From: Microbacterium sp. AG238
Lineage (GTDB): Bacteria > Actinomycetota > Actinomycetes > Actinomycetales > Microbacteriaceae
Length of the DNA: 64,000 nt
NCBI RefSeq assembly: GCF_003610405.1
Contig: NZ_RAQC01000001.1
Span: 1,240,001-1,304,000, forward strand
Reading direction: 5' to 3'
Below the pieces are notes generated by a model, which was not told the origin of the DNA, searched no databases, and saw only the letters and a list, made by a program, of their open reading frames with translations. Made by a program: the position numbers and the translations under genes. Each line of letters opens with the position of its first letter. Position 1 is the first letter of the stretch. Of this stretch, positions 31,173-55,890 are shown piece after piece.

Positions 31173-31201
31173 GTTGCATCCCGTTACCTGGCCGTTATAA
31201 C
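31173..31201 (+). promoter_or_regulatory. small-RNA promoter with GTTACC/GTTATA direct repeats
   Basis: TTGCAT (31174-31179), a 16-nt spacer and TATAAC (31196-31201) form a promoter. GTTACC (31183-31188) and GTTATA (31194-31199) are direct repeats with an 11-bp period, as in MtrA-type binding sites. GTTGCA at 31173 is a weaker third unit. Confidence 0.6.
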
Positions 31202-31206
31202 TTCGA

Positions 31207-31297
31207 GGCACGCAGTTCCCCCCAACTGCGCGGTGTGATCTCTGGTGCAAGGGATGACAGGGCCGGTCGACGATTCTGAGTCGGCCGGCCCTTCTCA
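31207..31297 (+). ncRNA. predicted small RNA A (about 90 nt)
   Basis: After the promoter comes a hairpin CGCAGTT-CCCCCC-AACTGCG (31211-31230) with a six-C loop. Next are GTGTGAT, the element CTCTGGTGCAAGGGA (31240-31254), and a 12-bp terminator stem (31260-31271 with 31280-31291). There is no ORF inside. A second locus at 53938 shares promoter, layout and the GGTGCAA element. The C-loop hairpin recalls actinobacterial 6C RNA, but only one such loop is present. It ends 38 nt before the MFS gene, which has its own -10. Confidence 0.6.
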
Positions 31298-31323
31298 CGT
31301 CCGCGGGGTGCTCCCGCCGGTCG

Positions 31324-31335
31324 TAGGCTGGCCCG
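31324..31335 (+). promoter_or_regulatory. -10 element of the YnfM-like transporter gene
   Basis: TAGGCT at 31324-31329 is 6 nt before the GTG at 31336, separating this gene from the small RNA upstream. Confidence 0.6.
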
Positions 31336-32547
31336 GTGCGAGCGTTCACCGGTCATCTTCCCGGGTCGCCCGCTTACCGCCGGCTCATCGCCGGGTTGTT
31401 CTTCGCCGGCGTCGCGACCTTCGCGCAGTTGTACTCGCCGCAGGCGGTCCTCCCCTTCATCGGCTCGGAGTTCGCGGTCGAACCCGCCACAGCCGCGCTG
31501 GCGGTCTCGGTCTCAACTCTCGGTCTCGCCGTCGGTGTCATCCCCTGGTCGGTCGTGGCCGACCGCATCGGGCGCGTGCCCGCGATGGCGATCGGAGTGA
31601 TCGCCGCGACGGTCCTGGGCCTGCTCGCCCCGCTCGCTCCGACACTGCCCCTGTTACTCGGCGCCCGACTGCTCGAGGGCGCGGCGCTCGGCGCCGTGCC
31701 GGCCATCGCCCTGGCGTATCTGTCGGAAGAGGTCGACGCCGCCCACACCGCGACAGCGGCGGGCAGCTACATCGCCGGTACCACGATCGGCGGGCTGCTC
31801 GGAAGGCTGGTCGCGGGTCCCTTCGGCGACGTCGGTCTGTGGCGGGGCGGGGTGTTCGCCGTCGCGGCGGTGTGTGCCGCGTCGGCCGTGCTCTTCCTGT
31901 GGCTCACGCCACCGGCTCGCGGTTTCGCGCCGCAGCGTAGGACCGGCGCGACGGGCCCGTCACTGGTCGCCCGACTCACGACGAACCTGCGCGACCGCCG
32001 CCAGCTCGCTCTGTACGCTCAGGGGTTCCTCCTCATGGGCGGCTTCGTCGCCGTGTACAACTACCTCGGGTTCCACCTCGTCGCGCCGCCGTACTCGTTG
32101 CCGTTGTGGGTGGTGAGCTTCCTCTTCCTCGCCTACCTCGCCGGCACCGTCGCTTCGCCCTGGGCCGGGTCGCTCGCGGCACGGTACGGCCGCCTGGCGG
32201 TACTGCTCGCCGCGCTGGCGGTCATGGCGATCGGCATCGTCGTGACCGCGGTGCCTCACGTCATCGCGGTACTGGTGGGGCTGCTAATCCTGACGGCGGG
32301 CTTCTTCGGCGCGCATGCGATCGCGTCGGGCTGGGCTCCCGCGGCGGCGAGGCCGGAGACCCGGGCTCAGGCCGCATCGCTGTACTACCTCGGGTACTAC
32401 GGCGGCTCGAGTCTGTTCGGATGGCTCCTGGGCTATGCCTTCCACGATCTCGGGTGGGTCGGTGTCGCCGGATGCACCCTCGCGATGGTCGCGATCGCAG
32501 CGCTGCTCGCGGTGTTCGGGCTCACGGCGCCGCGTCGCTCTGCCTGA
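31336..32547 (+). CDS. major facilitator transporter, YnfM-like
   Basis: This 403-residue protein has 12 predicted helices. The N-terminus (RRLIAGLFFAGVATFAQLYSPQAVLPF) resembles the YnfM branch of DHA1 efflux proteins, and VADRIGRVPAM is the loop-2/3 motif. The substrate is unknown. Its last 26 nt overlap the 3' end of the convergent MFS gene at 32522. Confidence 0.87.
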   Translation: MRAFTGHLPGSPAYRRLIAGLFFAGVATFAQLYSPQAVLPFIGSEFAVEPATAALAVSVSTLGLAVGVIPWSVVADRIGRVPAMAIGVIAATVLGLLAPLAPTLPLLLGARLLEGAALGAVPAIALAYLSEEVDAAHTATAAGSYIAGTTIGGLLGRLVAGPFGDVGLWRGGVFAVAAVCAASAVLFLWLTPPARGFAPQRRTGATGPSLVARLTTNLRDRRQLALYAQGFLLMGGFVAVYNYLGFHLVAPPYSLPLWVVSFLFLAYLAGTVASPWAGSLAARYGRLAVLLAALAVMAIGIVVTAVPHVIAVLVGLLILTAGFFGAHAIASGWAPAAARPETRAQAASLYYLGYYGGSSLFGWLLGYAFHDLGWVGVAGCTLAMVAIAALLAVFGLTAPRRSA

Positions 32548-33952
32548 CCGCCGGCGCCACACCCGACGACCGGGCGACCTCGCTGGAATCCGCACCCCCG
32601 GGTGCCGCGGGCTCGGACGGCGGCGCCTCGGCGTACGCCCGGCTCAGCCGCCGGTACTGCGGCGAGGCGAAGGCGAGGAGCACGATGACGAGCATGAGGG
32701 CGCTCGCGGCGACGAAGGCCAGGGCGATGCCCCGCGCCTCGCCCCCGCCGAGCAACCAGCCGAAGGTGCGCTCACCGGTATCCGTACGCATGAAGGGGAT
32801 GAGGCCGAACTGCGCGAGCGGCCCGATCAGATACGCCGAAATCGGCGACGCCGCCGACTCGACCGACGCCGCGAAGCCGAAGACCCTCCCCTGGGTATGG
32901 AACGGCACGACGCGCTGGATGACGGTCTGCTCGGCAGCCTCGGCCACGGGCATGAGCATCATGAAGACGAAGATCCCGAGTGCGTAGAGCCACCACCACT
33001 CGCGGATTGCGAAGGTCATGCCCAGCACGGCGACGCCCACGTTGACGAGAAGCAGCGTACGCACGGGGTTGCGTCCGAGTCCGCGCGCAGCGACGAGGGC
33101 GCCGCCGAGGATGAAGCCGGTGCCGGTGACCGCGAGCACGATGCCCCACGCCTCCACAGTGAAGAGCGTCAGCCCGTAGGGATCCATGAGCGCCATGAAG
33201 ACCCCGCCCACGAGGTTGTTGATGGTGGTGAACAGGATCAGTGCCAGCAGGCCCGGCACGGCGCGGATCGCCGGGATCACACCGCGGAACGTGAAGGCCG
33301 GTGTGGCGGCATCGTGAGCCGCGGCGACGCCGCGCTCGGGGATCGACACGAACATCAGATGGCCGAGGGCGAGCGCCGTCGCGGTGACCGCGATCACGAC
33401 CGTCCATCCCATTCCGAGCAGGCCGATCGAGAGGCCGGAGAAGACGCTCGTGACGATGAACGCCACGCCTTGCACGGTTCCGACCAGGCCGTTCGCCCGG
33501 TCGCGGCGGTCGCCCGGCACGAGAAGCGTCACGGTGGTCGACAGCGCGATGTTGCGCAGGTTCTCGACCACTCCCCCGATGAGGATCAGCCCCGCGAAGA
33601 TCCAGAACCAGGGCCGGCCCCAATCGACGAGGACCGCCTCGGGGAACAGCAGATAGACCGCACCGGCACCGAGATAGGTCGCGAGGGTGATGAGGCTCGA
33701 GAGCACCATCACCGCCTTCTTCTTCAGGTGGTCGACAAGGGCCCCGAAGACCACCCCGAACACGGCGACGAGCAGCATGTACGAGCCGCCGATGATGGAT
33801 GTCGCCAGGACGTTCTCCGTCGCGAGGTAGGCCCAGAACGTCAGGGCGAACCAGAGGAAGCTCGAGGTCACGTTCGCGAGCAGAGTATTGCCGAGCACCT
33901 GGTGGAACGCGCGCATGCGCGAGGACTCCAGTGCGCTGAGCGGGGCGGTCAT
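32522..33952 (-). CDS. major facilitator transporter, macrolide-efflux-like
   Basis: This 476-residue protein has 12 helices and a non-conserved C-terminal tail rich in Ala, Pro and Ser. The start ATG at 33952 is set by TACTGT 7 nt upstream. GNTLLANVTSSFLWFALTFWAYL begins helix 1, and GALVDHLKKKAVMV is the loop after helix 2. It resembles MefA-type exporters. Its 3' end overlaps the neighbouring transporter gene by 26 nt on the other strand, so full-length mRNAs would be complementary at their ends. Confidence 0.85.
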   Translation of the reverse strand: MTAPLSALESSRMRAFHQVLGNTLLANVTSSFLWFALTFWAYLATENVLATSIIGGSYMLLVAVFGVVFGALVDHLKKKAVMVLSSLITLATYLGAGAVYLLFPEAVLVDWGRPWFWIFAGLILIGGVVENLRNIALSTTVTLLVPGDRRDRANGLVGTVQGVAFIVTSVFSGLSIGLLGMGWTVVIAVTATALALGHLMFVSIPERGVAAAHDAATPAFTFRGVIPAIRAVPGLLALILFTTINNLVGGVFMALMDPYGLTLFTVEAWGIVLAVTGTGFILGGALVAARGLGRNPVRTLLLVNVGVAVLGMTFAIREWWWLYALGIFVFMMLMPVAEAAEQTVIQRVVPFHTQGRVFGFAASVESAASPISAYLIGPLAQFGLIPFMRTDTGERTFGWLLGGGEARGIALAFVAASALMLVIVLLAFASPQYRRLSRAYAEAPPSEPAAPGGADSSEVARSSGVAPAVRQSDAAP

Positions 33953-33959
33953 GGGACGA

Positions 33960-33965
33960 ACAGTA
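33960..33965 (-). promoter_or_regulatory. -10 element of the MefA-like gene
   Basis: TACTGT on the minus strand, 7 nt before the ATG at 33952. Confidence 0.45.
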
Positions 33966-34009
33966 GACCCGGTCGCCGACACGGAGAAGAACGGGTTTCG
34001 GGTGGCTCG

Positions 34010-34840
34010 TCAGGCTCGCAGCGCGGGGTCGGCGAGCGACCACTTTTGGGCCGTCTGCATCATCCAGAACACGAGGAACAGCGCCAGGGCGACGAGCTCT
34101 CCGGCCAGCACGACGGGGAGGTCGAAGAGCATCGCCGACACGGCGGTCGCGGCGAGGTCGAGCAGCAGCGCGACCGCGACGACGATGTACCCGATCCGCG
34201 TCCGCCGCGCGGGTGGGTGCGTATCGGAGGGCCGCAGCGCCTCGGCGAGCGCAACGAGGGCGATGAGGATGAAGAAGCCGAACGCCGCGACGGCGTGACC
34301 GTAGCGGACGAGCTGGTCGGGCGCGAGAGTCCAGACGAGGGTCGTGGCCGCCAGCACCGCGGCCGCCAGAGCGAGGGTCGGACCGGTGTCGCGGAGGGCG
34401 ATGTCGCCCCGCCGGGCCAGCACGAGCCCGATCGCGAGCACGGCAGCGCCGATCGCGAGGTACGTCGCCACGGCGTTGTCGAGGTCGTCCGTGAACCCGA
34501 CGGGAACGCACGGGGCGGCGCAGTCGACGACGACGCCGGGCACCTCACCGGGCGAGACCGGCGTGGGGATGATGGCGATGAGCGGGGCCAGGAGCGCCGC
34601 GACATCCAACAGCACGCGTTGCGGGCCCCGCCCGGAGAGCGCGAGCAGGCAGGCCGCGGCGGTGACCAGGGCGGCGGAGAAGACGGTGCGGGCCGAGGAA
34701 TAGAAGTAATGGCTGACGCTGGGGAGCACTCCCGCGTCGGGGATCGCGAAGAGCACCGCGAGCATGATCGCGATCGGCGCACCCGCGAGGGTCAGGCGCA
34801 GATAGCGGTAGGTGCGCTGCGAAGTCGAGACGGCCGGCAC
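34010..34840 (-). CDS. 276-residue polytopic membrane protein of unknown function
   Basis: Seven or eight hydrophobic helices alternate with short loops. A pair of cysteines flanks a Pro in VDCAAPCVPVGF (about residue 107), probably in an outside loop. The segment SHYFYSSARTVFSAALV follows helix 1. I do not recognise the family. It starts with GTG at 34840, TAGCCT being 6 nt upstream, and is monocistronic. Confidence 0.7.
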   Translation of the reverse strand: MPAVSTSQRTYRYLRLTLAGAPIAIMLAVLFAIPDAGVLPSVSHYFYSSARTVFSAALVTAAACLLALSGRGPQRVLLDVAALLAPLIAIIPTPVSPGEVPGVVVDCAAPCVPVGFTDDLDNAVATYLAIGAAVLAIGLVLARRGDIALRDTGPTLALAAAVLAATTLVWTLAPDQLVRYGHAVAAFGFFILIALVALAEALRPSDTHPPARRTRIGYIVVAVALLLDLAATAVSAMLFDLPVVLAGELVALALFLVFWMMQTAQKWSLADPALRA

Positions 34841-34846
34841 GACGCC

Positions 34847-34852
34847 AGGCTA
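34847..34852 (-). promoter_or_regulatory. -10 element of the 34010-34840 gene
   Basis: TAGCCT on the minus strand, 6 nt before the GTG. Confidence 0.55.
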
Positions 34853-34870
34853 ACGGCGGGGTCGGACGCA

Positions 34871-34915
34871 CCGCATCCGCCCCGCGGCAGCGTCGCTGCG
34901 GCGGAGCGGATGCGG
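34871..34915 (-). terminator. terminator of the azt operon
   Basis: CCGCATCCGC (34871-34880) pairs with GCGGATGCGG (34906-34915), with further GC pairing inside. It lies 12 nt past the last gene of the zinc operon. Confidence 0.65.
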
Positions 34916-34927
34916 GCATGCCTCATG

Positions 34928-36112
34928 TCAGGAGACGGCGGCGATCTCGTTCGGCACGTGCGGCAGCGTCACCGTCTGCACGATCTCACCCGTCGTGAGA
35001 TCGACCGCGATGAGCTCGCTGTCGGCCGGATCGGTGATGTAGGCGATGTCTCCCGCGACCTTGACCGCCGGGTGCGGAGCCTGCCACTCGGCCGGCCCTT
35101 CCCACGGGTCGACGACGGGCAGCGACTTCGTGACACCGCCGGTGGCGGGATCGATCCAGTGCAGCGATCCGTCGGTGCCGATCAGCACGGCCTCGGCGGA
35201 CGGCCCGCGCGCGATGCCGCGGAAGGTGTACTCGACGCCGGCGGGCAGCGCGACCTTGGTCAGCGACTTCGCCTCGGTGTCGACGAGAGCGATGTTGCGC
35301 AACAGGTAGCCCTCGGCGTCGGGGTCGTCCTTGTAGTCCATGACGACGAGCGGGCTGTCCTCGGCGACGAAGGCGTTGCCGATCCGGCCATAGGAGTCGG
35401 GCGAGGTGACCTTGGTGATCTCGCCGCCGTCGTAGATGATCGCGCCGTTCTCGCATCCGAACACGACGCGCTCCTCCTCGGCGGTGCCCTCACCGTGGAC
35501 GCCCGGGCAGTCGGCGTTCGAGGCGATCTCGGCGCGATTCGCGTCGAGCACGCGGATGCCGGTGCGCCCGGCCTCGCCGCCGACGGTGGTCAGCAGCGTG
35601 CCGTCCTCGAGCTCGACCGAGACACCGTGGTGCGCCTCGACGCCGGGGATCACCTCGGCGTCGGGCAGCGTGCCGTCGAGCTGAGCGAGGTCGGCGGTGT
35701 CGAAGATCGTCGTATCGCTCGTCGCGTCGTCGTAGAGCACGGTCTTGCCGCCGTGGACGACGACGTGGCCGGCGGCGGCCGCCGGGACGACGAGGTCGGT
35801 GAGTTCGGGCTGCTGGACGTCGAGCAGCTGGAAGCCCTCCGACGTCGTGACCATGACGTGGCGGCCGTCACCGGCCGCATTGAGTCGGATGAAGTCCTCC
35901 GAATCGAAGTCTCCGATCACCTCGAGCTCGTCGCCGCCGAGCACGAGCACACCGCCTTCGTAGCCGAGCGCGACCCGGGGACCGGCGGGGACGGATGCCT
36001 CGGTCGACGCGTCGCCGGACGGGCCGGATGCCGGGGACGGTGAGGACGAGCATCCCGCCAGCACCAGGGCTGCGGCGCCGGCGAGGGCACCGAACTGCAG
36101 GGTTCTCTTCAT
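34928..36112 (-). CDS. aztD: AztD-like zinc metallochaperone lipoprotein (second copy)
   Basis: This 394-residue lipoprotein (signal peptide ending VLAGC, C21) is followed by a Ser/Pro linker and a beta-propeller-like repeat body (VMVTTSEGFQLLDVQ, GHVVVHGGKTVLYDD, GSLHWIDPATGG, YITDPADSELIAVDLTTGEI). This is the build of AztD, the periplasmic zinc chaperone that loads AztC. The ATG at 36112 is preceded by GGAAAGGA. A start at 36145 overlapping the aztC stop would spoil the signal peptide. It is the last gene of aztB-aztD-like-aztC-aztD. Confidence 0.8.
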   Translation of the reverse strand: MKRTLQFGALAGAAALVLAGCSSSPSPASGPSGDASTEASVPAGPRVALGYEGGVLVLGGDELEVIGDFDSEDFIRLNAAGDGRHVMVTTSEGFQLLDVQQPELTDLVVPAAAAGHVVVHGGKTVLYDDATSDTTIFDTADLAQLDGTLPDAEVIPGVEAHHGVSVELEDGTLLTTVGGEAGRTGIRVLDANRAEIASNADCPGVHGEGTAEEERVVFGCENGAIIYDGGEITKVTSPDSYGRIGNAFVAEDSPLVVMDYKDDPDAEGYLLRNIALVDTEAKSLTKVALPAGVEYTFRGIARGPSAEAVLIGTDGSLHWIDPATGGVTKSLPVVDPWEGPAEWQAPHPAVKVAGDIAYITDPADSELIAVDLTTGEIVQTVTLPHVPNEIAAVS

Positions 36113-36141
36113 GGGGTGGGTTTCCTTTCCAGGGAAATGCC

Positions 36142-37044
36142 TCATCGGGTGAGGCCGTCGGTGATGCGCTGGAGGTTCTGGCGCATCATGTCGAGGTAGG
36201 TGTCGCCGGGCTGCCCCTCCGGCGCGAGCGACTCGGTCAGCAACGGCACGACCGACACATCGCGCCCGGCCTCATCGGCGAGGACGCGCATGAGCCGGTC
36301 GGGCTGCGACGAGTCGGCGAAGATCGTGCGGACCCCGGCCGAGTCGATCGCGTCGACGAGGTCCTGCAGGTCGGAGGCGCTGGGGGCCGCGAGCGTCGTG
36401 CCGCCCGGCACGGCCGCGCCGAGGATGCGCACGTCGTAGCGGCGCGCGAGGTAGCCGAACACGTGGTGGTTGGTGACGAGGGCCCGGTGCTCGGCGGGGA
36501 TGGACTCCAGGCCGGTGGCCATCTCGGAATCCACCGCCTCGAGTTCCGAGACGTACGCGTCGGCGGCATCCGTCACGGCCCGTCCGCCGTCGCCGGCGAG
36601 GTCGGCGAGGACCGGGGCGAGTGCGTCGACGACGCGGGCGGTCTGGGTCGGATCGGTCCAGAAGTGCGGGTCGACCGCGTCGGAGTCGAGGTAGCCGAGG
36701 GCCTCGACGTGGTCGCCCGCGACGAACTGAGCCACACCGTCGGCGGCGGACGCGTCGACATGATGCTGCACGCCCTCTTCGAGCCCGAGCCCGTTCGAGA
36801 CCACCAGATCGGCACTGCGCATCGTCGCCGCGTCCTGAGCCGACAGCTCGAACGAGTGCGGATCGGCGTCACGCGGCATGAAGGTGACGACGTCGAGCTC
36901 GTGGCCGGCGAGGTTCTGCACGATGTCGCCCAGGATGTTGGTCGTCACGACCACGGTCGGACGGTCGCTTCCGCCCGCCGAGCAGCCCGCGAGCGAGACG
37001 ATTCCGGCGACGACGAGACCGAGAGCCAGCGTCACCCGCCTCAT
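36142..37044 (-). CDS. aztC: zinc ABC transporter substrate-binding lipoprotein AztC
   Basis: This 300-residue cluster A-I (ZnuA/PsaA fold) binding protein has a lipobox LAGC (C21). The probable zinc ligands are H63 (DADPHSFE), H127 (DPHFW), H193 (TNHHVFGYLA) and D244 (FADSSQ). The usual His-rich mobile loop of ZnuA is short and nearly His-free, as in AztC, which relies on AztD. The ATG overlaps the stop of the upstream gene by 4 nt. Confidence 0.88.
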   Translation of the reverse strand: MRRVTLALGLVVAGIVSLAGCSAGGSDRPTVVVTTNILGDIVQNLAGHELDVVTFMPRDADPHSFELSAQDAATMRSADLVVSNGLGLEEGVQHHVDASAADGVAQFVAGDHVEALGYLDSDAVDPHFWTDPTQTARVVDALAPVLADLAGDGGRAVTDAADAYVSELEAVDSEMATGLESIPAEHRALVTNHHVFGYLARRYDVRILGAAVPGGTTLAAPSASDLQDLVDAIDSAGVRTIFADSSQPDRLMRVLADEAGRDVSVVPLLTESLAPEGQPGDTYLDMMRQNLQRITDGLTR

Positions 37045-38276
37045 CGGCCCGTCTCCGCGAAGAAAGCGGGCGCATGCTCAGTCGTGAAGCTCCGGGCCAC
37101 CCGCCCGCCGTCGGCGGGATCGATTTCGAAGAGCGTTCGCTCGGCGGGCCCGTTGAGGTAGGTGCGCCGCTGATCCGCGACGAGGTCGACACCGGCGGCG
37201 AGCGCCGGGTCGGCGAGGGATGCCGCCACCAGCGGCTCCGTGCGGGAGAGCTGCTCCCCCGTCGTGCCCGAGATGACGATCACCGAGCCGTCTGCGGCGA
37301 GCGCGACGACGGTCTCGTCGGCGTCGTCGACGGCCGTGACGCGGACGATGGGCTCGCCGGCGTCGAAGGACGTCCACGACCGCTCCCGGGTGTCGAGCAG
37401 CCAGAACGCCGAGGATTCGGTACGACCGGCCACGGTGGGGCGGCCCTCGCGGTTCGCGAATGACAGGGCGCGGCTCGGCCCGCCCTCGGGGTACGGAATG
37501 CGCTCGAGAGACGTCCCCGCGGCATCCGAGACGGCGAGCACGGCACCGTCAGCGCAGCCGACGACGACGCCGACGTTCGTTGCGATAGACCCCGCGGGAT
37601 CGACGCAGGGCGTGGTGCCGAGTTCGGCCCCCGTCGCGTCGACGCGACGGATCTCGCCCGCGGCCGCATCGCCGATCAGGGCACCTCCGGGGCTCGGCAC
37701 GACGAAGGAGCCGGGCGCGTCGAGCGTGAGCCGGAAGCTCTCGACGATGTCGCCCTTCTTGAGCGCGTCGAAGTCGAGCAGCACGGCCTCGCCGCCGCGG
37801 TCGCCGTCGTCGAAGTACACGCCCACTCCGAGGTCGCTCGTGACGGTGCGCGGGGTGCCGGAGCCGGTCACCTCGCCGAGGAGGCGGGCGGGGGCCTCGT
37901 AGTAGTGGAAGTGGTCGATGTGATTCCAGGTCCACACCCCGCTGTCGATGATCGACACCTCGCCCTCACGACCGGCGAACAGGAAGCGCCCCTCGCTGTC
38001 GAGCGTGTCGGCCGGGGCGACGTCACCGAGCACCTCGGACTCCTCGTCGATCAGGTCGAGGTGGTAGACGGCACCGTCGGTGCCGATGCTCGTGAGATGC
38101 AGAGCGGGCTCGGCGAGTTCGCGCGCCCCGGCGATGGCGCCGTGACCGTCGCCGAGGGCCGAAGCACGGGTATCCGGGGTCGCGGCGGGCGTGCTGGAGG
38201 GTGTGGCTTGGCAGCCGGCGAGCAGAGCGGCTCCGGCCGTGAGCGCGATGAGCGAGAGAGGTGCACGAGTTCTCAT
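37041..38276 (-). CDS. AztD-like lipoprotein (first copy, with His cluster)
   Basis: This 411-residue lipoprotein (LLAGC, C22) has the same propeller-type layout as the protein encoded at 34928. It carries a distinct motif WNHIDHFHYYEAP with H119, H122 and H124, a likely metal site, plus a GHG stretch near residue 45. GAAAGGA precedes the ATG at 38276, which overlaps the aztB stop by 4 nt. Two AztD-type proteins flanking aztC in one operon suggests two zinc donors or a division between binding and transfer. Confidence 0.75.
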   Translation of the reverse strand: MRTRAPLSLIALTAGAALLAGCQATPSSTPAATPDTRASALGDGHGAIAGARELAEPALHLTSIGTDGAVYHLDLIDEESEVLGDVAPADTLDSEGRFLFAGREGEVSIIDSGVWTWNHIDHFHYYEAPARLLGEVTGSGTPRTVTSDLGVGVYFDDGDRGGEAVLLDFDALKKGDIVESFRLTLDAPGSFVVPSPGGALIGDAAAGEIRRVDATGAELGTTPCVDPAGSIATNVGVVVGCADGAVLAVSDAAGTSLERIPYPEGGPSRALSFANREGRPTVAGRTESSAFWLLDTRERSWTSFDAGEPIVRVTAVDDADETVVALAADGSVIVISGTTGEQLSRTEPLVAASLADPALAAGVDLVADQRRTYLNGPAERTLFEIDPADGGRVARSFTTEHAPAFFAETGR

Positions 38277-39154: not shown

Positions 39155-39176
39155 GATCGACGACGATACATGAAAG

Positions 39177-39191
39177 TGAGAACGATTTTCA
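39177..39191 (+). promoter_or_regulatory. Zur-like box between aztB and aztA
   Basis: TGAGAACGATTTTCA is a near-palindromic 7-1-7 site like the TGAnAAnnnTTnTCA zinc-uptake-regulator boxes. It covers the spacer between -35 and -10 of aztA (AATACT at 39197-39202) and lies upstream of aztB, so it would shut off both directions when zinc is plentiful. Confidence 0.7.
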
Positions 39192-39208
39192 TTTGCAATA
39201 CTGGGGCG

Positions 39209-39921: not shown

Positions 39922-39925
<4 letters not shown>
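39209..39925 (+). CDS. aztA: zinc ABC transporter ATP-binding protein AztA
   Basis: This 238-residue ATPase has Walker [10 protein letters not shown] (about 46-54), Q-loop VPQTSND, signature LSGGQRQR, Walker [13 protein letters not shown] and switch His VTHD. It energises zinc import through AztB. The ATG at 39209 is leaderless, 6 nt from AATACT. It is divergent from aztB and overlaps pgi by 4 nt (GTGA). Confidence 0.9.
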
Positions 39926-41607
<1,682 letters not shown>

Positions 41608-41623
41608 CCCCCGCCCCCCCTCT

Positions 41624-41687: not shown

Positions 41688-41700
41688 GGTAGGACGTGGG

Positions 41701-42255: not shown

Positions 42256-42262
42256 CCGTCTA

Positions 42263-43927: not shown

Positions 43928-43939
43928 CCCGCCGACAAA

Positions 43940-44007: not shown

Positions 44008-44019
44008 CGGGGACGGGGG

Positions 44020-46125: not shown

Positions 46126-46172
46126 GGCTCTTCTCCTGTTCTCCGACGGGTGGCCGGAGTTCTTCGCCCGGA

Positions 46173-46178
46173 ACTTTA
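46173..46178 (-). promoter_or_regulatory. possible -10 element of the PTS gene
   Basis: TAAAGT on the minus strand lies about 48 nt before the ATG. It is flanked by an imperfect inverted repeat (CCCGGAACT near 46167 and AGTTCGCCGGG near 46186), which may be an operator. Confidence 0.35.
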
Positions 46179-46213
46179 CCCTGAGAGTTCGCCGGGAACG
46201 AGGGGTTGACCCG

Positions 46214-47722: not shown

Positions 47723-47803
47723 GGGTCTCCTCGGTCGTCGGGGTGCCGGCGCGCGGAGAAGGTTCGGCGCGCACGACGCATCGCCCCGACGGTCGCCGAG
47801 GCG

Positions 47804-48457
47804 TCAGGAAGCGAGGAGTGCGGGCGGGCCGCGGCGGGCGGGAGCCGCCAGGAGAGCTCGGAGGCGCGGCATACCGACGCTCGCCGTCAGCGGGCGCACC
47901 CGCGGCGGCATCTGGACGCGAGGGAGGGCGCCTCGGGTCACGGTACGCAGTCGCAGCGCGATCCGCCGGGCGATGTCCGACAGGGCCGCGACGAGCTGCT
48001 CGCCGCGATGGAGCAGAAGCGTCGTCACTGCGGCGGCCAGCACGTGGGCCACGAGCATCGCGGCATCCGGTGCGACCCCGGCCAGCGCACCCGGCACACC
48101 GGGTATAGCGAGGGATGCCGGCAGCGACATATGTCCCGCATGCAGGCTGAACGGACCCGTCTGGCCCGCGGCATCGGGCGCGCCCGGCGTCGAGCCTGCA
48201 AGCGGGACGACCCCGAGCGCGAACATGACGTGGAAGAGCGCCTGCGCGGCGGTGACGGCCACCCCGAGGCGAACGACCGAGAGACGCCGCCCGACGACGA
48301 GAAGGCTCACCATCAGCGAGAGCGCCCACGGTAGCGCGGCGCCCAGGGGCGAAGGCGGTTCGCCTCCCGCCGCGACGTGCGAGAGCAGCGCGACGAACGT
48401 CGCCAGGGTCGCGGCGGCGACGGCTCTCAGCGCGCGCTGGTGGCGAGGGGAGGTCAC
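47804..48457 (-). CDS. 217-residue membrane protein beside the PepSY gene
   Basis: Five or so hydrophobic helices are followed by a basic Arg/Pro-rich C-terminal tail. A His/Met-containing outside loop (FSLHAGHMSLPAS) may bind metal. The GTG at 48457 (MTSPRHQRALRA) is chosen because the first helix follows directly. It lies between luxS and the PepSY gene on the same strand; its function may be tied to metal handling, but I do not recognise the family. Confidence 0.6.
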   Translation of the reverse strand: MTSPRHQRALRAVAAATLATFVALLSHVAAGGEPPSPLGAALPWALSLMVSLLVVGRRLSVVRLGVAVTAAQALFHVMFALGVVPLAGSTPGAPDAAGQTGPFSLHAGHMSLPASLAIPGVPGALAGVAPDAAMLVAHVLAAAVTTLLLHRGEQLVAALSDIARRIALRLRTVTRGALPRVQMPPRVRPLTASVGMPRLRALLAAPARRGPPALLAS

Positions 48458-48494
48458 GTCGCGGCGGTCAGTCGGTCGATCGGTCGGGCGGTCG

Positions 48495-48968
48495 TCAGAC
48501 TCCGACGCGGGAGAAGGCGTCGAGGCTGATGCCCTGATCGAGCACGGTCTTCGACCACTCGCGGGCCGAGTGCAGGGAGTGGTCGCGGTAGTTGCCGCAC
48601 TCGAGCGCGGAGACGCCCGGGATGTCGGCCTCGACCGCCTCATCGGCGATGAAGCGCAGGCTCCCCGTCAGTGCGGCGACGACGTCGGCGACCTCGGGCT
48701 CGCCCCACATCAGCAGGTGGAATCCGGTGCGGCAACCGAAGGGCGAGATGTCGATGACACCGTCGATGCGGTCACGGAGGAGGCCGGCGAGCATGTGCTC
48801 GATGGTGTGGATGCCGGCGGTCGGGATCTCGCCCGCGTTGGGCTGCACGAACCGCACGTCGAAGTTCGTGATGGTTCCGCCGCCCGGACCGTGCTCGACC
48901 CCGATGCGCCGCACATACGGGGCGATCACGGCGGTGTGGTCCAGCGTGAAGCTCTCGATTTCAGCCAT
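48495..48968 (-). CDS. luxS: S-ribosylhomocysteine lyase
   Basis: This 157-residue enzyme splits S-ribosylhomocysteine to homocysteine and DPD, the precursor of autoinducer-2. The metal ligands H54 and H58 (HTIEHM, with general base E57) and C124 (LECGNYRDH) are present, and C79 lies in PFGCRTGFH. The ATG at 48968 follows GGGAGGAAACC. It is part of the activated methyl cycle; a nucleosidase-like gene at 7599 could supply its substrate. It is divergent from the wall-lytic gene. Confidence 0.96.
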
Positions 48969-49198
48969 GGTTTCCTCCCTCGGCGCGGGCGGTCGGACAG
49001 CAGACACAGCCCGTCGTTCCGGCCAGATTAGCCCGCCGAGCCGCGGGGTCGGCCCACCCCCGCTCCCAGGTTACGTCCAGGGACTGTCCGGGACTCGTCC
49101 AGACTCACCGCGCAGACTCGGGGAGTTTTGTGCGTCCGCCCGAGACGCCCGCCGCCTGTCGCGGTGCCCGCAAACATCGAAGGACCGCCCCTGTTCGC

Positions 49199-50233
49199 AT
49201 GACTTCTTCGTCAAGCCAGCCCACCCGCCGCGACCTGCGGCGCTCCACCAGCTCCAGCTCCACCAGCTCCACCACCTCCGCATCCCGCCGCTTCGTCCGC
49301 CCCGCCGCCCTCACTCTCGGGCTGGCCCTGGGCCTGACAGCGGTCGTCGGCACGACCGCTTCGGCCGCCCTTCCCACCGCTTCGGGTCCCGCACCCGTCA
49401 TGCAGCGCGCCGCGCTCGTGACCGCCGCGGCGACCTCGACGGCCAAGCCGCTCAGCGCGATCGAGCAGGCCACGAGCGACGCGGTCGCCGCAGCCGAGGC
49501 ATCCGTCGTCGAGGCCGCGACCGTGACCGGCGACGTGTCCGCGGCCGCCCTCCCCATCGAGGGCGACACGACGATCGACACCGCGCAGCTTCGTGAGCGT
49601 ATCGAGGGTCTGAAGCAGACCGACGTCATCCCGACGCTGCTCCTCCCCGACCTGACCGACAAGCTGGTCGACGCGACCGATGACGTGCAGGCCGAGACGT
49701 CCGACCTGCGCGGGCGCCTCGAGGCGGCGCAGGCGCAGAAGGCAGCCGAGGAAGAGGCCGCTCGCATCGCCGCTGAGGAGGCTGCAGCAGCCGAGGCCGC
49801 CGCACAGGCCAAGGCCGAGGAAGAAGCCGCCGCCGCCGCGGCCGCACAGCGCTCGACCAGCTCGCGTTCGTCGTCCTCGTCGTCGGCTGCGCCCGCTGCT
49901 TCTGCGGTCGCCTCGACGGGTGACAACTCGCCCGGCGCCGCACAGGAGGCCGCGAGCAGCATGCTCGGCGAGTTCGGTTGGGGCCAGGACCAGTTCTCGT
50001 GCCTCGTCTCGCTCTGGAACAAGGAGTCGGGCTGGAACTACCAGGCCTACAACAGCGGCAGCGGCGCCTACGGCATCCCGCAGGCGCTCCCCGGCAGCAA
50101 GATGGCGTCGGCCGGCGGCGACTGGCAGACCAGTGCCGTCACGCAGGTCCGCTGGGGCCTCGGCTACATCTCCGGCCGCTACGGCTCGCCGTGCGGCGCG
50201 TGGGGCCACTCCCAGTCGACCGGCTGGTACTGA
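49199..50233 (+). CDS. secreted lysozyme-like transglycosylase (APF C-terminal type)
   Basis: This 344-residue secreted protein has a long Ser/Arg-rich N-region, a signal helix (PAALTLGLALGLTAVVGTTASA, about 33-54), an Ala/Glu-rich coiled region (about 180-230), and a Ser-rich linker. The C-terminal lytic domain FGWGQDQFSCLVSLWNKESGW...YGIPQALPG has the catalytic Glu in NKESGWN and two Cys. It cuts peptidoglycan or modifies the wall during growth. The upstream 230-nt gap holds GGTTACG and short repeats of GTCCAG/GTCCGG but no clear promoter. Confidence 0.88.
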   Translation: MTSSSSQPTRRDLRRSTSSSSTSSTTSASRRFVRPAALTLGLALGLTAVVGTTASAALPTASGPAPVMQRAALVTAAATSTAKPLSAIEQATSDAVAAAEASVVEAATVTGDVSAAALPIEGDTTIDTAQLRERIEGLKQTDVIPTLLLPDLTDKLVDATDDVQAETSDLRGRLEAAQAQKAAEEEAARIAAEEAAAAEAAAQAKAEEEAAAAAAAQRSTSSRSSSSSSAAPAASAVASTGDNSPGAAQEAASSMLGEFGWGQDQFSCLVSLWNKESGWNYQAYNSGSGAYGIPQALPGSKMASAGGDWQTSAVTQVRWGLGYISGRYGSPCGAWGHSQSTGWY

Positions 50234-50244
50234 CCCGATAGCAG

Positions 50245-50304
50245 GCGAAAGCGCACGTCTGCACGGTCCGCTGACGCGGAGACCGTGCAGACGTGCGCTT
50301 TCGC
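50245..50304 (+). terminator. 24-bp perfect hairpin between convergent genes
   Basis: The 24-nt arm at 50245-50268 is the exact reverse complement of 50281-50304, with a 12-nt loop. It begins with GCGAAAGCGCACG. It lies 11 nt after the transglycosylase stop and 12 nt before the end of the minus-strand mini-ORF, so it works as a two-way terminator. Confidence 0.92.
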
Positions 50305-50316
50305 TGTGCCGGCGGG

Positions 50317-50448
50317 TCAGTCCTCGTCCGGGAGAGCCTCGTCGTCGAGGAGGTCGTCGCCCGTGACCTCGAGCGTCGGGGCCTCCTCGATCGGGTCGAT
50401 CGGCATCTCACCGGGTGCGACGAAGGGCACGTTTCCATTGAGACTCAT
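50317..50448 (-). CDS. 43-residue acidic mini-protein
   Basis: The reading frame from the ATG at 50448 is preceded by GGGAGGAACCCTC, a strong ribosome site. The product starts MSLNGNVPFVAPGEMPIDP and ends DDLLDDEALPDED, with no Cys, Trp or membrane helix. A strong hairpin follows its stop. The good start signal, terminator and lack of alternatives make it a likely real gene of unknown function. Confidence 0.7.
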   Translation of the reverse strand: MSLNGNVPFVAPGEMPIDPIEEAPTLEVTGDDLLDDEALPDED

Positions 50449-50588
50449 GAGGGTTCCTCCCTGCAGTTCGTGAACCGCTCACGCTACGACGATGCCCGGC
50501 CGCGGTCAGCCCCGTTGCCTCGCGGCGACGTCGGGTGTACCCGGTGTCGGTGGTCGGGGGTACCGTCGGTCGCGACGAGGAGGTCACC

Positions 50589-51023
50589 ATGAACAGGCTC
50601 GGCAACATCACCTTCTATGCAGACGATCCGCGGGCGCTCTCGCACTTCTGGTCGGATGTCTTCGGCTATCCCCGCCTCGACTGGCCCGACGACATGCGCC
50701 GGCAGCAGCTCGAGGCCGGTCTCACCGACGACGATCTCGACCGCCGAGGGCTCGCCGAAGATCCCGACGGCCGCGGGCCGCGCCTCTACTTCCATCACGC
50801 CGACGGCGCGAAGACGGGGCGCAACCGGCTGCACATCGACGTCTCGGTCGCACCCGCAGACGGCGAGCGCCGGGCCTCGCCGCAAGCCGTAGACGCCGAG
50901 AAGGATCGGCTCGTCGCGCTCGGCGCGAGCGTCGTCCGGCTCGTCGAGCAGCAGTGGGGCGCGTGGCCCGAGCGCTACTGGCAGATGACAGACCCCGAGG
51001 GCAACGAGTTCTGCCTCCAGTGA
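50589..51023 (+). CDS. VOC-superfamily (glyoxalase-like) protein
   Basis: This 144-residue protein has two beta-alpha-beta-beta-beta units: ITFYADDPRALSHFWSDVFG at the start and RLHIDVSV...EKDRLVALGASVV...MTDPEGNEFCL at the end. This is the glyoxalase_6 form common in actinobacteria. The metal ligands and substrate are not certain. GAGGAGGTCACC precedes the ATG. Confidence 0.87.
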   Translation: MNRLGNITFYADDPRALSHFWSDVFGYPRLDWPDDMRRQQLEAGLTDDDLDRRGLAEDPDGRGPRLYFHHADGAKTGRNRLHIDVSVAPADGERRASPQAVDAEKDRLVALGASVVRLVEQQWGAWPERYWQMTDPEGNEFCLQ

Positions 51024-51033
51024 CCACCCGTCA

Positions 51034-51046
51034 TAGGGTCGACGTC
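51034..51046 (+). promoter_or_regulatory. -10 element of the amidohydrolase gene
   Basis: TAGGGT at 51034-51039 is 7 nt before the ATG at 51047. Confidence 0.5.
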
Positions 51047-52285
51047 ATGGCCCCCCGCATCCTCGCCGTCGTGAACGGCCGCATCGTCCCCGTGTCCGCA
51101 CCCGTCATCGAGGGCGGGACGGTCGTCGTCACCGACGGCGTGATCACCGCCGTCGGCGGACCCGAGACGCCCGTTCCCGACGGAGCCGAGATCGTGGATG
51201 CCGCGGGGCGTTGGGTGCTGCCCGGATTCGTCGAGGCCCACGGGCATCTCGGCGTCCACGAAGACGGCGAAGGCTGGTCGGGTAATGACACCAACGAGAT
51301 GACCGACCCGAACGGCGCTCGTTTCCGCGCACTCGACGGCATCGACATCGAGGAGGTCGGGTTCCGCGACGCATTGCGCGGCGGCGTGACGTCCGTCGTC
51401 ATCAAGCCGGGATCGGGCAATCCGATCGGCGGACGCACGGTCGCGATCAAGACCTGGGGCGGGCGCACCGTCGACGAACAGGTGATCGCCGAGAACGTGT
51501 CGGTGAAGTCGGCCCTCGGCGAGAACCCCAAGCGCGTCTACGGTGACAAGAAGCAGACGCCCTCGACCCGCCTGGGCGTCGCCTCCGTGCTGCGCGACGC
51601 CTTCGTCGATGCGCAGAACTACGTGGCCAAACGGGATGCCGCGGCAGCCAAGGGCGAACCATTCGATCGCGATCTCGGCAAAGAGACGCTCGCGGAGGTG
51701 CTCGACGGCACGCTCCTGTGGGACCAGCACAGCCACCGGCACGACGACATCGTCACCGCGATCCGTCTGGCCGAGGAGTTCGGCTACCGCCTCGTCGTCA
51801 ACCACGGCACCGAAGGCCACAAGATCGCCGATGTCCTGGCCGAGAAGGGCATCCCGGTCATCTTCGGACCGATGCTCACCTCGCGCTCGAAGGTCGAACT
51901 GCGCGACCGTGCGATCGGGGCCCTCGCCCTGATCGCTGCGGCGGGCGTCACCGTCGCGATCACGACCGATCACCCGGTTGTGCCGATCGACCAGATCCGG
52001 CTGCAGGCCATCCTGGCAGTGCGCGAGGGCCTCCCGGCCGACGTCGCCCTGCAGGCGCTGACGACCAACCCCGCCAGCATCCTGCGTCTCGACGATCGCG
52101 TCGGTGCTCTCGAGCCCGGTCGCGACGGCGACATCGTGCTGTGGTCGGGCGACCCGCTCGCGGTCGAATCGCGTGTCGAGCACGTCGTGATCGGCGGCAC
52201 CACGGTGCTCGAGAGCACCGATGACGCAGTCGTGCACATCGTCGAGCGGTGGGAGCGGTTCGGGCGCTCCAGCTGGCTGCGCTGA
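51047..52285 (+). CDS. amidohydrolase (imidazolonepropionase-like)
   Basis: This 412-residue TIM-barrel metal hydrolase has the first metal motif VEAHGHLG near residue 64, a QHSHRHDD segment in mid-chain, VNHGTEGHK, and ITTDHP near residue 307 with the final catalytic Asp. The C-terminal DRVGALEPGRDGDIVLWSGDPL completes the small beta domain of the family. The substrate is unknown (cyclic amide or dipeptide-like). Confidence 0.88.
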   Translation: MAPRILAVVNGRIVPVSAPVIEGGTVVVTDGVITAVGGPETPVPDGAEIVDAAGRWVLPGFVEAHGHLGVHEDGEGWSGNDTNEMTDPNGARFRALDGIDIEEVGFRDALRGGVTSVVIKPGSGNPIGGRTVAIKTWGGRTVDEQVIAENVSVKSALGENPKRVYGDKKQTPSTRLGVASVLRDAFVDAQNYVAKRDAAAAKGEPFDRDLGKETLAEVLDGTLLWDQHSHRHDDIVTAIRLAEEFGYRLVVNHGTEGHKIADVLAEKGIPVIFGPMLTSRSKVELRDRAIGALALIAAAGVTVAITTDHPVVPIDQIRLQAILAVREGLPADVALQALTTNPASILRLDDRVGALEPGRDGDIVLWSGDPLAVESRVEHVVIGGTTVLESTDDAVVHIVERWERFGRSSWLR

Positions 52286-52367
52286 GCCCGCCCGGCTGAA
52301 CCGGAGTCTCTCGCGCCCGCGAGCGCAAGAGGTACGCGCATGCCGCTGGACGGGTGTGCACTGAGGC

Positions 52368-53432
52368 ATGTCGAACCTGCCTTTGTGGCTGCTCCTGGTG
52401 ATGTTCGTCGGCGCTGCGGCCGTCGTGTGGGTGGCGGGCATCCAGCTCTCGAAGTCGACCGACGTGCTCGACGACCGATGGCACATCGGCAGTGCCTTCG
52501 GTGGACTGATCGTGCTCGCTGTGGCGACGAACCTGCCGGAGATCGCCATCACCGTCAGCGCCGCGATCTCGGGAAACCTCGAGGTCGCCGTGGGCAACAT
52601 CCTCGGCGGCATCGCCCTGCAGACGGTCGTACTGGTGATCCTCGACGCGTTCGGCAAGCGCGGGCGCGGGGTCAGGCCGCTCACCTATCGTGCGGCGTCA
52701 CTCGTCCTCGTGCTCGAAGCCGTGGTCGTGGTCGCCGTGCTCGCCGTGGTGATGGCGGGCAGCCAGCTGCCCGGCGACCTCGTCGTCGCACGGGTGACCC
52801 CCGATGTCGTGCTCATCGCGGCGCTGTGGCTCGCGGGGCTCTTCCTCGTGCAGCGCGCCGGGAAGCATCTGCCCTGGCATGAGAACGGCACGTCGCCGGG
52901 CGCGAGCGAGCACACGCCGGGCCACCGGCGCGCGAAGCCGCAGCATCCGCATCATGCGATGAGCACTCCCGCGGTCGTCGTGGTGTTCGTGGTCTCGGCG
53001 CTCGCGACCCTCGGTGCGGGAGTCGTTCTCGAACGATCCGGCGACGCGATCGCCGACGGGATCGGGCTGTCGGGCGTGCTGTTCGGAGCCACCGTCCTCG
53101 CGCTGGCCACCGCGCTGCCGGAGATCTCGACGGGGCTGCAGGCGATCCGGCAGGGCGACGACAACCTCGCGATGAGCGACATCTTCGGCGGCAACGCCTT
53201 CCTGCCGGTGCTGTTCCTCGTGGCGACACTGATCTCGGGGCAGGCTGTGCTGCCCCAAGCGAACGGCGCCGACATCTATCTCACGGCGCTGGCCGCGCTG
53301 CTGACCCTCGTGTATGTCGTCGGGCTCATCTTCCGGCCCGCACGGCGCGTCGCCGGGATGGGCGTCGACTCGCTCGTCGTGCTCGTGCTCTACGGCGCCG
53401 GCGTGGCGGGTCTCTTCGCCGTCGCCGGGTGA
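52368..53432 (+). CDS. CaCA-superfamily cation:proton/sodium exchanger
   Basis: This 354-residue protein has ten or eleven helices in two halves. The alpha repeats ATNLPEIAITVSAAISGNLEVAVGN and ATALPEISTGLQAI...NLAMSDIFGGN carry the conserved Pro-Glu and Asn residues. A His-rich cytosolic loop between the halves (HTPGHRRAKPQHPHH, about 180-200) may sense cation. It is a calcium or sodium exporter. The first base of its ATG lies 82 nt after the amidohydrolase stop. Confidence 0.85.
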   Translation: MSNLPLWLLLVMFVGAAAVVWVAGIQLSKSTDVLDDRWHIGSAFGGLIVLAVATNLPEIAITVSAAISGNLEVAVGNILGGIALQTVVLVILDAFGKRGRGVRPLTYRAASLVLVLEAVVVVAVLAVVMAGSQLPGDLVVARVTPDVVLIAALWLAGLFLVQRAGKHLPWHENGTSPGASEHTPGHRRAKPQHPHHAMSTPAVVVVFVVSALATLGAGVVLERSGDAIADGIGLSGVLFGATVLALATALPEISTGLQAIRQGDDNLAMSDIFGGNAFLPVLFLVATLISGQAVLPQANGADIYLTALAALLTLVYVVGLIFRPARRVAGMGVDSLVVLVLYGAGVAGLFAVAG

Positions 53433-53465
53433 GCGTCGCCGAGTGGGCGTCGCCGAGGGCGCGGG

Positions 53466-53876
53466 TCAGATCTCGTCCGAGCGGGGCGACCGCACCGACC
53501 AGCCCACGCGGCGCAGTGCATCTGCCAGGCGCGCGGCCTCGGTCGCCGCAGCATCCCACGACACGTCGGAGCACACGTCCACCGCAAGCGGGGGCGGGTC
53601 GGCGAACTTCGGGATCTGCACCTCCGCCCATACGTCCCGGCCGAGTCCGACGCGGGGGAACGCGGTGCCCGCGTTCTCGATGACGCCGTCCGAGACGAAG
53701 GCGATCGTCTCGAGCGCGTCGGGCTTGGCGATCGGCAGGTCGACGACGAGCGTGACCACGAAGGGTCCGCTGGCGGTGTCTCGGCCGTGGGCGTGCACCC
53801 GCTCATCCTGACAGACCGGCGGCTCCTCGAAGGCCGAAAGCCCGACGTCGGTGAGGCGCAGGCTCAGTGTTCTCAA
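53466..53876 (-). CDS. 136-residue protein of unknown function
   Basis: A soluble protein with no signal or membrane helix starts at a TTG at 53876. The sequence SGPFVVTLVVDLPIAKPDALETIAFV and the C-terminal helix ATEAARLADALRRVGW look like a compact alpha/beta domain. No family is recognised. Its start faces the promoter of small RNA B on the other strand. Confidence 0.6.
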   Translation of the reverse strand: MRTLSLRLTDVGLSAFEEPPVCQDERVHAHGRDTASGPFVVTLVVDLPIAKPDALETIAFVSDGVIENAGTAFPRVGLGRDVWAEVQIPKFADPPPLAVDVCSDVSWDAAATEAARLADALRRVGWSVRSPRSDEI

Positions 53877-53903
53877 TGATTACGAAGAGATAACGGAAAA
53901 CCC

Positions 53904-53931
53904 TTGCTCGTCGTTACCTCGTCGTTATAGA
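53904..53931 (+). promoter_or_regulatory. small-RNA promoter with GTTACC/GTTATA direct repeats
   Basis: TTGCTC (53904-53909), a 16-nt spacer and TATAGA (53926-53931) form a promoter with the same layout as that at 31174. GTTACC (53913-53918) and GTTATA (53924-53929) again repeat with an 11-bp period, here within a duplicated CTCGTCGTTA. Confidence 0.6.
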
Positions 53932-53937
53932 GTGCTC

Positions 53938-54042
53938 GCACGGTAGCTGTTTGCTGTGGCAGCCACCGGCATGTGATTGCAGGAAACTCTTGGTGCAAAG
54001 GGACGAGGGCCCGACCGAATGCCTCTTCGGTCGGGCCCTCAA
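53938..54042 (+). ncRNA. predicted small RNA B (about 105 nt)
   Basis: The layout is a hairpin CGGT-GCTG...CAGC-ACCG (53941-53967), ATGTGATT, the element CTCTTGGTGCAAAGGGA (53987-54003), then a 13-bp perfect terminator stem (54007-54019 with 54026-54038). No ORF fits. It stands alone between a divergent gene start and a convergent gene end. Small RNA A at 31207 has the same order of parts. Confidence 0.65.
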
Positions 54043-55883: not shown

Positions 55884-55890
55884 GCCGACC

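What the first reader, a model, noticed from the sequence alone, without database searches (positions are those of the whole stretch)
31173..54042. Two look-alike small RNAs, 31.2 kb and 53.9 kb, with MtrA-like repeats in their promoters
Both loci share TTGCNN-N16-TATARN promoters with GTTACC-N5-GTTATA direct repeats, a 5' hairpin, a GTGTGAT-like stretch, the element CTCT(T)GGTGCAA(A)GGGA, and a strong GC terminator (12 and 13 bp). The 5' hairpins differ (one has a CCCCCC loop), which fits paralogous regulators with a constant seed and variable target region. Neither belongs to a flanking gene. I know no family with this GGTGCAA core; resemblance to 6C RNA is limited to one C-loop in copy A.
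Basis: partly seen in the sequence, partly recalled or inferred. Interest (0 to 1): 0.75.

Follow-up and report, generated by a model that had tools for sequence, protein, structure and literature searches.

The report
Family-wide small RNA in Microbacteriaceae
Two predicted small RNA genes in this Microbacterium genome belong to an apparently undescribed RNA family carried by most of its bacterial family and sharing a promoter element found at only these two places in the genome; what the RNA regulates is unknown.

Summary
Copies A (31.2 kb) and B (53.9 kb) share a promoter with a GTTACC-N5-GTTATA repeat, a 5' hairpin, the GGTGCAA hairpin and a GC-rich terminator. B belongs to an RNA family found in 200 of 249 Microbacteriaceae genomes (70 of 85 genera), 146 of 149 Microbacterium genomes and, weakly, 1 of 139 genomes from other families of the order. 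The 5' stem and terminator covary; the 5' loop and linker are nearly invariant. No Rfam family matches; 6C is a separate RNA. A is a distant, rare paralogue (second-best match in the window, E 1.5e-4); further paralogues keep box, GGTGCAA core and terminator but change the 5' part. In this genome the box occurs only at these two promoters. It fits published MtrA and GlnR boxes equally; a linked orphan winged-helix protein with a GlnR-like DNA-binding domain (16115-16807) is my preferred regulator. Transcription, regulator and targets are untested. Best reading: trans-acting sRNA genes with a constant 3' module and exchangeable 5' loops. New sRNA family, known kind.

The parts
31174..31179 (+). 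copy A, -35-like hexamer TTGCAT
   Evidence: sequence; 18 bp upstream of the -10 as re-read
31183..31199 (+). copy A, operator-like direct repeat GTTACC-N5-GTTATA
   Evidence: one of only two matches in the genome
31198..31203 (+). copy A, -10 hexamer TAACTT (re-registered)
   Evidence: column conservation
31210..31297 (+). copy A, inferred sRNA (about 88 nt)
   Evidence: inferred start about 7 nt after the -10; fold z -3.6; R1 25.6 bits, E 1.5e-4; R2 97 bits, but it is a training sequence of R2
31211..31230 (+). copy A, 5' hairpin CGCAGTT-CCCCCC-AACTGCG
   Evidence: same hairpin in L014 and L015
31240..31254 (+). copy A, constant hairpin CTCTGGTGCAAGGGA (loop GGUGCA)
31259..31294 (+). copy A, GC-rich terminator hairpin without U tract
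53904..53909 (+). copy B, -35-like hexamer TTGCTC
53913..53929 (+). copy B, operator-like direct repeat GTTACC-N5-GTTATA
   Evidence: box upstream of all 38 scored best loci found with the RNA model
53928..53933 (+). copy B, -10 hexamer TAGAGT (re-registered)
   Evidence: column conservation
53940..54042 (+). copy B, inferred sRNA (about 103 nt)
   Evidence: R1 94 bits (its sequence is in the model); homologues in 200 of 249 family genomes; fold z -4.1
53941..53968 (+). copy B, 5' hairpin with covarying stem and near-invariant loop UUUGCUGUGG
53971..54003 (+). copy B, near-invariant linker AUGUGAUUGCAGGA and hairpin CUCUUGGUGCAAAGGGA
54005..54040 (+). copy B, GC-rich terminator hairpin, loop with GCCUC
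   Evidence: GCCTC near the 3' end in 33 of 46
16115..16807 (+). candidate regulator: orphan winged-helix protein (Trans_reg_C in a homologue) with GlnR-like DNA-binding domain
   Evidence: linked to the sRNA across the family
55919..56350 (+). MarR-family regulator that often directly follows the sRNA in relatives
   Evidence: (76 of 170 loci)

Best explanation
A and B are independent genes for small non-coding RNAs of one family. B is the family-wide ancestral form; A is a diverged paralogue in a few Microbacterium. Each is transcribed from a sigma-70-type promoter whose spacer holds an 11-bp-period direct repeat bound by an OmpR-superfamily winged-helix regulator, most likely acting as a repressor because the site covers spacer and -10. 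The RNA has a 5' hairpin that presents a loop (UUUGCUGUGG in B, CCCCCC in A), a linker that is near-invariant in B, a GGUGCAA hairpin and a terminator. I propose that loop and linker base-pair with several mRNAs, while the GGUGCAA hairpin plus terminator is a constant scaffold, perhaps a protein-binding site. Shown by computation: homology, structure, distribution, and a box confined to these promoters in this genome. Inferred: transcription, operator function and sign, regulator identity (orphan GlnR-like protein about 0.45, MtrA 0.25, GlnR 0.2, other 0.1), antisense action (about 0.6).
For: Model R1 (46 sequences): 200 of 249 family genomes, 70 of 85 genera; 146 of 149 Microbacterium, 135 of 135 good-quality ones. 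Covariation: 18 of 30 pairs with changes on both sides; 176 such cells against 45 shuffled. Near-invariant loop and linker: TTTGCTGTGGC in 43 of 46, TGTGATTGCA in 45 of 46, GGTGCAA in 46 of 46 (the 46 were picked by a pattern that contains GGTGCAA). Promoter box in 38 of 38 scored loci found with R1, which contains no promoter (best-scoring loci, and R1's training copies all had the box). In the window genome the box pattern occurs only at A and B. In the family sample, of 59 genomes with a listed sRNA position 54 have the strict box at the sRNA. An inverted second box lies upstream in 72 of 195 loci, 64 of them at 8-9 bp; shuffled 0.03%. A homologous to B.
Against: No transcript data were available. 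No target found: duplex tests against the start regions of the linked winged-helix gene (34) and MarR gene (42) gave mean z -0.21 and -0.13, like 80 control sites (-0.10). The strict box is not confined to sRNA genes in all relatives: of 82 boxes checked in 57 genomes, 54 are at the sRNA, 2 are its inverted partner and 26 lie elsewhere. A as a free gene is less certain: its terminator ends about 40 bp before an MFS gene in the same direction (kept in L014 and L015). The winged-helix gene is wider than the sRNA: 42 of 249 family genomes have it without an R1 hit, two have the sRNA without a match to it at E up to 1e-40, and it occurs in other families of the order, where 12 stretches showed no strict box and no convincing sRNA. 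The constant hairpin shows no covariation (0 of 6 pairs), so its pairing is unproven. The terminators of A and B lack a U tract.
Confidence: 0.78

Rival explanations
1. MtrA is the regulator, so the sRNAs belong to the MtrAB cell-envelope/osmotic regulon.
For: The box fits the Streptomyces MtrA site GtnAcC-n5-GTnAcn (cited in PMC13189361, passage seen); MtrA may repress by occluding RNA polymerase (same paper).
Against: The box fits GlnR GTnAC-n6-GTnAC equally (PMC10704036). The strict box occurs only at the two sRNA genes in this genome, unusual for a global regulator; but MtrA sites are loosely conserved (PMC5650626), and looser sites were not searched for.
Confidence: 0.25
2. The RNA mainly binds a protein (a sponge or cofactor) through its invariant loop and GGUGCAA hairpin rather than pairing with mRNAs.
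For: Near-invariance of loop and linker in an RNA spread over 70 genera; GGUGCAA constant in the paralogues seen.
Against: The changing 5' loops of A and of the paralogues in G095/G096 suit changing targets better; invariant linkers also occur in multi-target sRNAs (general knowledge).
Confidence: 0.2
3. A is a leader/attenuator of the downstream MFS gene rather than a free sRNA.
For: Same strand; terminator about 40 bp before the MFS start at 31336; MFS kept next to A in L014 and L015.
Against: No MFS match beside L017 or L124, which keep the upstream gene; shares promoter and core with B, whose next gene is convergent.
Confidence: 0.12
4. A short peptide is encoded (GTG start within TGTGATTGCA).
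For: A GTG is present in 45 of 46; strong sequence conservation.
Against: Little variation at third codon positions, and frameshifting length changes within or after the core, e.g. L006, L025, L028; the ATG of AATGTGA is followed at once by a stop.
Confidence: 0.03
5. Members of the 6C RNA family.
For: A has a CCCCCC loop; paralogues in G095 and G096 have a C-rich loop.
Against: 6C is found as a separate locus in 5 of the 23 Microbacterium genomes of that sample (3 over the cut-off) and not in this genome; the two whose flanks I read (L142, L143) lack the box and GGTGCAA core; neither copy reaches any Rfam threshold.
Confidence: 0.01

Closest known systems
6C RNA (Rfam RF01066)
   Same: Short actinobacterial sRNA; C-rich hairpin loop in A
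   Different: 6C has two C-rich hairpins (recalled; seen in L142 and L143); separate locus and promoter; no RF01066 match here
Ms1 / 6S-type RNAs
   Same: Actinobacterial sRNA gene of unclear or global role
   Different: 6S/Ms1 are about 160 nt or longer (PMC9130861, passages); here 88-103 nt with small hairpins
MtrA-controlled promoters (Streptomyces, mycobacteria, corynebacteria)
   Same: Two short direct repeats with a 5-bp gap
   Different: Here a strict box, in this genome confined to the sRNA genes, inside the promoter spacer, often with an inverted second box in relatives
GlnR-controlled promoters
   Same: GTnAC-n6-GTnAC; the linked orphan regulator has a GlnR-like DNA-binding domain, 42% identical in the best fold match
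   Different: The orphan regulator shows no recognised receiver domain; a separate GlnR-like protein exists in this genome (L227)
C-rich-loop sRNAs that pair with ribosome-binding sites (e.g. staphylococcal; recalled, no call)
   Same: C-rich loop in A and in two paralogues
   Different: No sequence relation tested; no target shown

Membership tests
6C RNA RF01066 | score over the Rfam gathering threshold | tested here: not met
   No match in the window or in the own genome
any Rfam 15 family | gathering score | tested here: not met
   Only a tRNA elsewhere in the window. Best sub-threshold for B: Rhizobiales-2, 27 of 40 bits, and sar, 24.5 of 43, largely the terminator; neither appears for the homologue in L036 at E up to 1
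bacterial sRNA gene | own promoter, conserved structure, own terminator, intergenic (by sequence) | tested here: met
bacterial sRNA gene | detected transcript of the predicted size | not testable with these tools
   no expression data held
trans-acting antisense sRNA | base-paired mRNA targets | tested here: inconclusive
   only the two linked genes were tried, without signal; no genome-wide search
MtrA regulon | MtrA binding site by sequence | tested here: inconclusive
   fits the MtrA consensus but GlnR equally
MtrA regulon | binding by MtrA in vitro or in vivo | not testable with these tools
   needs EMSA or ChIP
GlnR family (orphan winged-helix protein) | GlnR-like DNA-binding domain | tested here: met
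   best PDB matches 8hml, 8hig, 8hih, GlnR by title; helix RTIDVHVRRLRAKLG against RTVDVHVRRLRAKLG
GlnR family (orphan winged-helix protein) | N-terminal receiver-like domain | tested here: inconclusive
   Pfam finds only Trans_reg_C in a homologue; N-terminal half predicted at low to middling confidence

The most novel reading that the evidence does not exclude
A dedicated one-regulator, one-RNA module of a whole bacterial family: an orphan GlnR-like winged-helix protein whose strict operator lies mainly at these sRNA genes (in this genome only there), driving a modular RNA whose constant GGUGCAA half is reused by paralogues with swapped 5' target loops.
Probability: 0.33. Interest if true: 0.78.

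Novelty: new member of a known kind. Interest (0 to 1): 0.6.

Why it matters
Microbacteriaceae are common in soil, plants and water (general knowledge), and the paper searches made here listed no such RNA. An RNA kept by most of the family with a nearly invariant core of about 30 nt is likely to matter to them. The clean module (a box found only twice in the genome, a linked candidate regulator, paralogues that change the 5' loop) makes regulator and targets directly testable in a cultivable laboratory strain.

Tried and rejected
Rejected: 6C membership; Rfam sub-threshold matches as chance, largely terminator; peptide coding (indels); a repeated or mobile element (one to three matches per genome, with recurrent neighbours).

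Led nowhere: duplex test against the winged-helix and MarR start regions; search for the sRNA or box beside the winged-helix gene in 12 stretches from other families of the order (best 19.8 bits, E 0.011; no strict box); the one out-of-family R1 hit, G482/L186, 32 bits, shares GTGATTGCAGGACA and a terminator-like hairpin without a box, probably chance. The sigma-70/terminator scan around A found nothing; it asks for a consensus -10 of another register and a T run. Paper searches listed nothing on this RNA; I saw listings and starts of abstracts, and found passages of four papers, none read whole.

Dropped rows: 8 of 120 pattern-found stretches (L019, L041, L061, L071, L079, L089, L103, L136) lack the RNA layout and by title are not Microbacteriaceae; 110 carry the B core and two are diverged, L120 and A-like L124; L112 is cut by its contig end. 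One search's output was cut in the middle. One search scored 38 of 41 loci L147-L187: my core search missed L184 and L187, which have the box, and L186, which does not. One search left out 9 of the 150 listed rows and some rows, among them the ones on different contigs; one search adds those that pair with a listed sRNA: 132 typed pairs in all, 122 on one contig, 10 on different contigs of draft assemblies. Matches beyond the listed ones were not paired.
Full report
OBSERVATION. Both loci are as described. Box GTTACC-N5-GTTATA lies at 31183-31199 (A) and 53913-53929 (B), followed by a 5' hairpin, the GGTGCAA element and a GC-rich hairpin. Both folds beat all 200 shuffles (z -3.6 and -4.1). Neither terminator has a U tract. 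B lies between an ORF that points away from it (53466-53876, minus; no Pfam match) and a DUF2207 gene that points towards it (54084-55970, minus); A lies between a plus-strand gene ending at 31114 and a plus-strand MFS gene from 31336.

B IS A FAMILY-WIDE RNA. Of these 110 carry the B core, two are diverged copies (L120, L124) and 8 are chance hits in other organisms. The titles include Microbacterium, Curtobacterium, Leifsonia, Agromyces, Cryobacterium, Frigoribacterium, Herbiconiux, Mycetocola, Agrococcus and others. From 46 representatives (alignment A1) I built model R1 without promoter. R1 matches 200 of 249 Microbacteriaceae genomes, 70 of 85 genera, and 146 of 149 Microbacterium, all 135 of good quality; by my count 47 of the 149 have two or three matches, some in tandem, e.g. 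G101. In an order-wide sample the 10 Microbacteriaceae match and 1 of 139 others, weakly (32 bits). The 200 is probably a lower bound: G209, without an R1 hit, has what looks like a diverged copy behind its box (L205). Of the 20 listed genomes without a match 13 are 0.9-2.0 Mb (29 more were not listed).

STRUCTURE. RNAalifold gives three helices. With the structure fixed, 95.2% of cells pair; 18 of 30 pairs have changes on both sides, in 176 cells (shuffled 45, slid versions 17-50). Covariation sits in the 5' stem (7 of 11 pairs) and the terminator (11 of 13). The GGUGCAA hairpin has none (0 of 6) because it hardly varies. Near-invariant: TTTGCTGTGGC in 43 of 46, TGTGATTGCA in 45 of 46, GGTGCAA in 46 of 46 (the last was part of the search pattern); GCCTC stands near the 3' end, in the terminator loop, in 33 of 46. 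Indels that shift frame, and little third-position variation, speak against a peptide.

A AND OTHER PARALOGUES. R1, built without A, scores A second in the window, 25.6 bits, E 1.5e-4 (unfiltered; next 19.6 bits, opposite strand of B's terminator region). Model R2 from five A-like copies finds strong matches in 4 of 149 Microbacterium (G000, G074, G161, G082; all four are training sequences) and weak ones at many B loci; 52 of 149 genomes in all at E up to 0.01. In G052, G095 and G096 it leads to further paralogues with the box (GTGACC in place of GTTACC in G095 and G096) and GGTGCAA but a different 5' part, C-rich in G095 and G096. In these seven genomes the paralogue lies 17.5-30.2 kb upstream of B on the same strand.

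THE BOX. To lessen circularity I looked upstream of loci found with R1 alone: 38 of 38 scored have GTTA[CT]C-N5-GTTATA, L184 and L187 too, L186 not. These are best-scoring loci, and R1's training copies all had the box, so some bias stays. In the window's genome GTTAYMN5GTTAYM occurs twice, at A and B; reversed control 0; looser sites were not searched. In a family sample GTTAYCN5GTTAYA occurs in 87 of 100 genomes. In the 57 of these with a listed sRNA position, 82 boxes were checked: 54 are at the sRNA, 2 are its inverted partner (G186, G200) and 26 lie elsewhere; 54 of 59 sampled genomes with a listed sRNA have the strict box there. A second, inverted box lies upstream in 72 of 195 loci, 64 of 72 at 8-9 bp, against 0.03% in shuffles; in B only one half (GATAAC) seems left. 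Lying in the spacer and running into the -10, a bound protein should block RNA polymerase; repression is my inference.

WHICH REGULATOR. The published Streptomyces MtrA site is GtnAcC-n5-GTnAcn (passage in PMC13189361; see also passages of PMC5650626); the S. venezuelae GlnR box is GTnAC-n6-GTnAC (passage in PMC10704036). Both fit. The neighbourhood adds a candidate: in 68 of 170 examined loci an orphan winged-helix protein lies near the sRNA, mostly just upstream on the same strand, and in 76 a MarR protein, mostly just downstream (many loci held only about 1.5 kb on each side). Of 132 typed genome pairs, 122 have the winged-helix gene on the sRNA's contig, all within 36 kb; 118 upstream on the same strand, 4 downstream on the opposite strand; 10 are split between draft contigs. 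In the window it is 16115-16807, plus strand, 14.4 kb before the box of A and 37.1 kb before that of B. A homologue has only Trans_reg_C in Pfam; the best solved relatives are GlnR DNA-binding domains, with recognition helix RTIDVHVRRLRAKLG against RTVDVHVRRLRAKLG. Its predicted fold is confident mainly in that domain (mean pLDDT 68). Against it: 240 of 249 family genomes have it, 42 of them without an R1 hit, and two with the sRNA gave no match to it at E up to 1e-40; other families of the order have it, and 12 such stretches showed no strict box and no convincing sRNA. Linkage may be shared ancestry. I give this protein 0.45, MtrA 0.25, GlnR itself 0.2.

MECHANISM. No target is known. The invariant loop and linker look like pairing regions; A's CCCCCC loop would suit G-rich ribosome-binding sites. 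The start regions of the two linked genes showed no signal. I hold antisense action at about 0.6 and protein binding at about 0.2.

KNOWN OR NEW. No Rfam 15 family reaches its gathering score at A or B; sub-threshold matches are largely terminator and do not recur in one homologue. 6C is a different locus, in 5 of 23 Microbacterium of one sample and not here. Paper searches listed nothing on it; subscription papers and raw transcriptomes are outside that library. Verdict: a new sRNA family of a known kind; its reach and its strict box are the interesting part.

Noticed in passing
L275 (G101:C1:1191700-1192300): Two nearly identical B-type copies in tandem, each with its own box and terminator, about 200 bp apart; close pairs also in G066, G077, G121.
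   Followed up: partly
upstream of the box in many loci, e.g. L154, L160, L211: A second box on the opposite strand at a fixed 8-9 bp distance, in 72 of 195 loci; in the window's B only a half seems left.
   Followed up: partly
L221, L222 and seven more genomes: A non-sRNA box GTTACCGGGT[AT]GTTACA recurs in 9 of 100 genomes; in L221 and L222 the 45 bases before it are nearly the same.
   Followed up: no
L124 (JACEFY010000083.1): A contig labelled Stenotrophomonas maltophilia carries an A-like copy and a relative of the gene upstream of A; probably contamination.
   Followed up: no
L186:1501-1593: In another family of the order, GTGATTGCAGGACA stands before a terminator-like hairpin after an apparent gene end; no box.
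   Followed up: partly
window 53971-54003 and alignment A1: UUGCA and UGCAA in the B core could pair instead of the CUCUU/AAGGG hairpin; the two exclude each other, so a switch is conceivable. A lacks the first part.
   Followed up: no
G011, G013, G016, G018, G020: 6C-like RNAs (RF01066) in 5 of 23 Microbacterium genomes of the sample, two of them below the cut-off; none in the window's genome.
   Followed up: no
62828-62900 (-): The only Rfam gathering match of the window, a tRNA.
   Followed up: no
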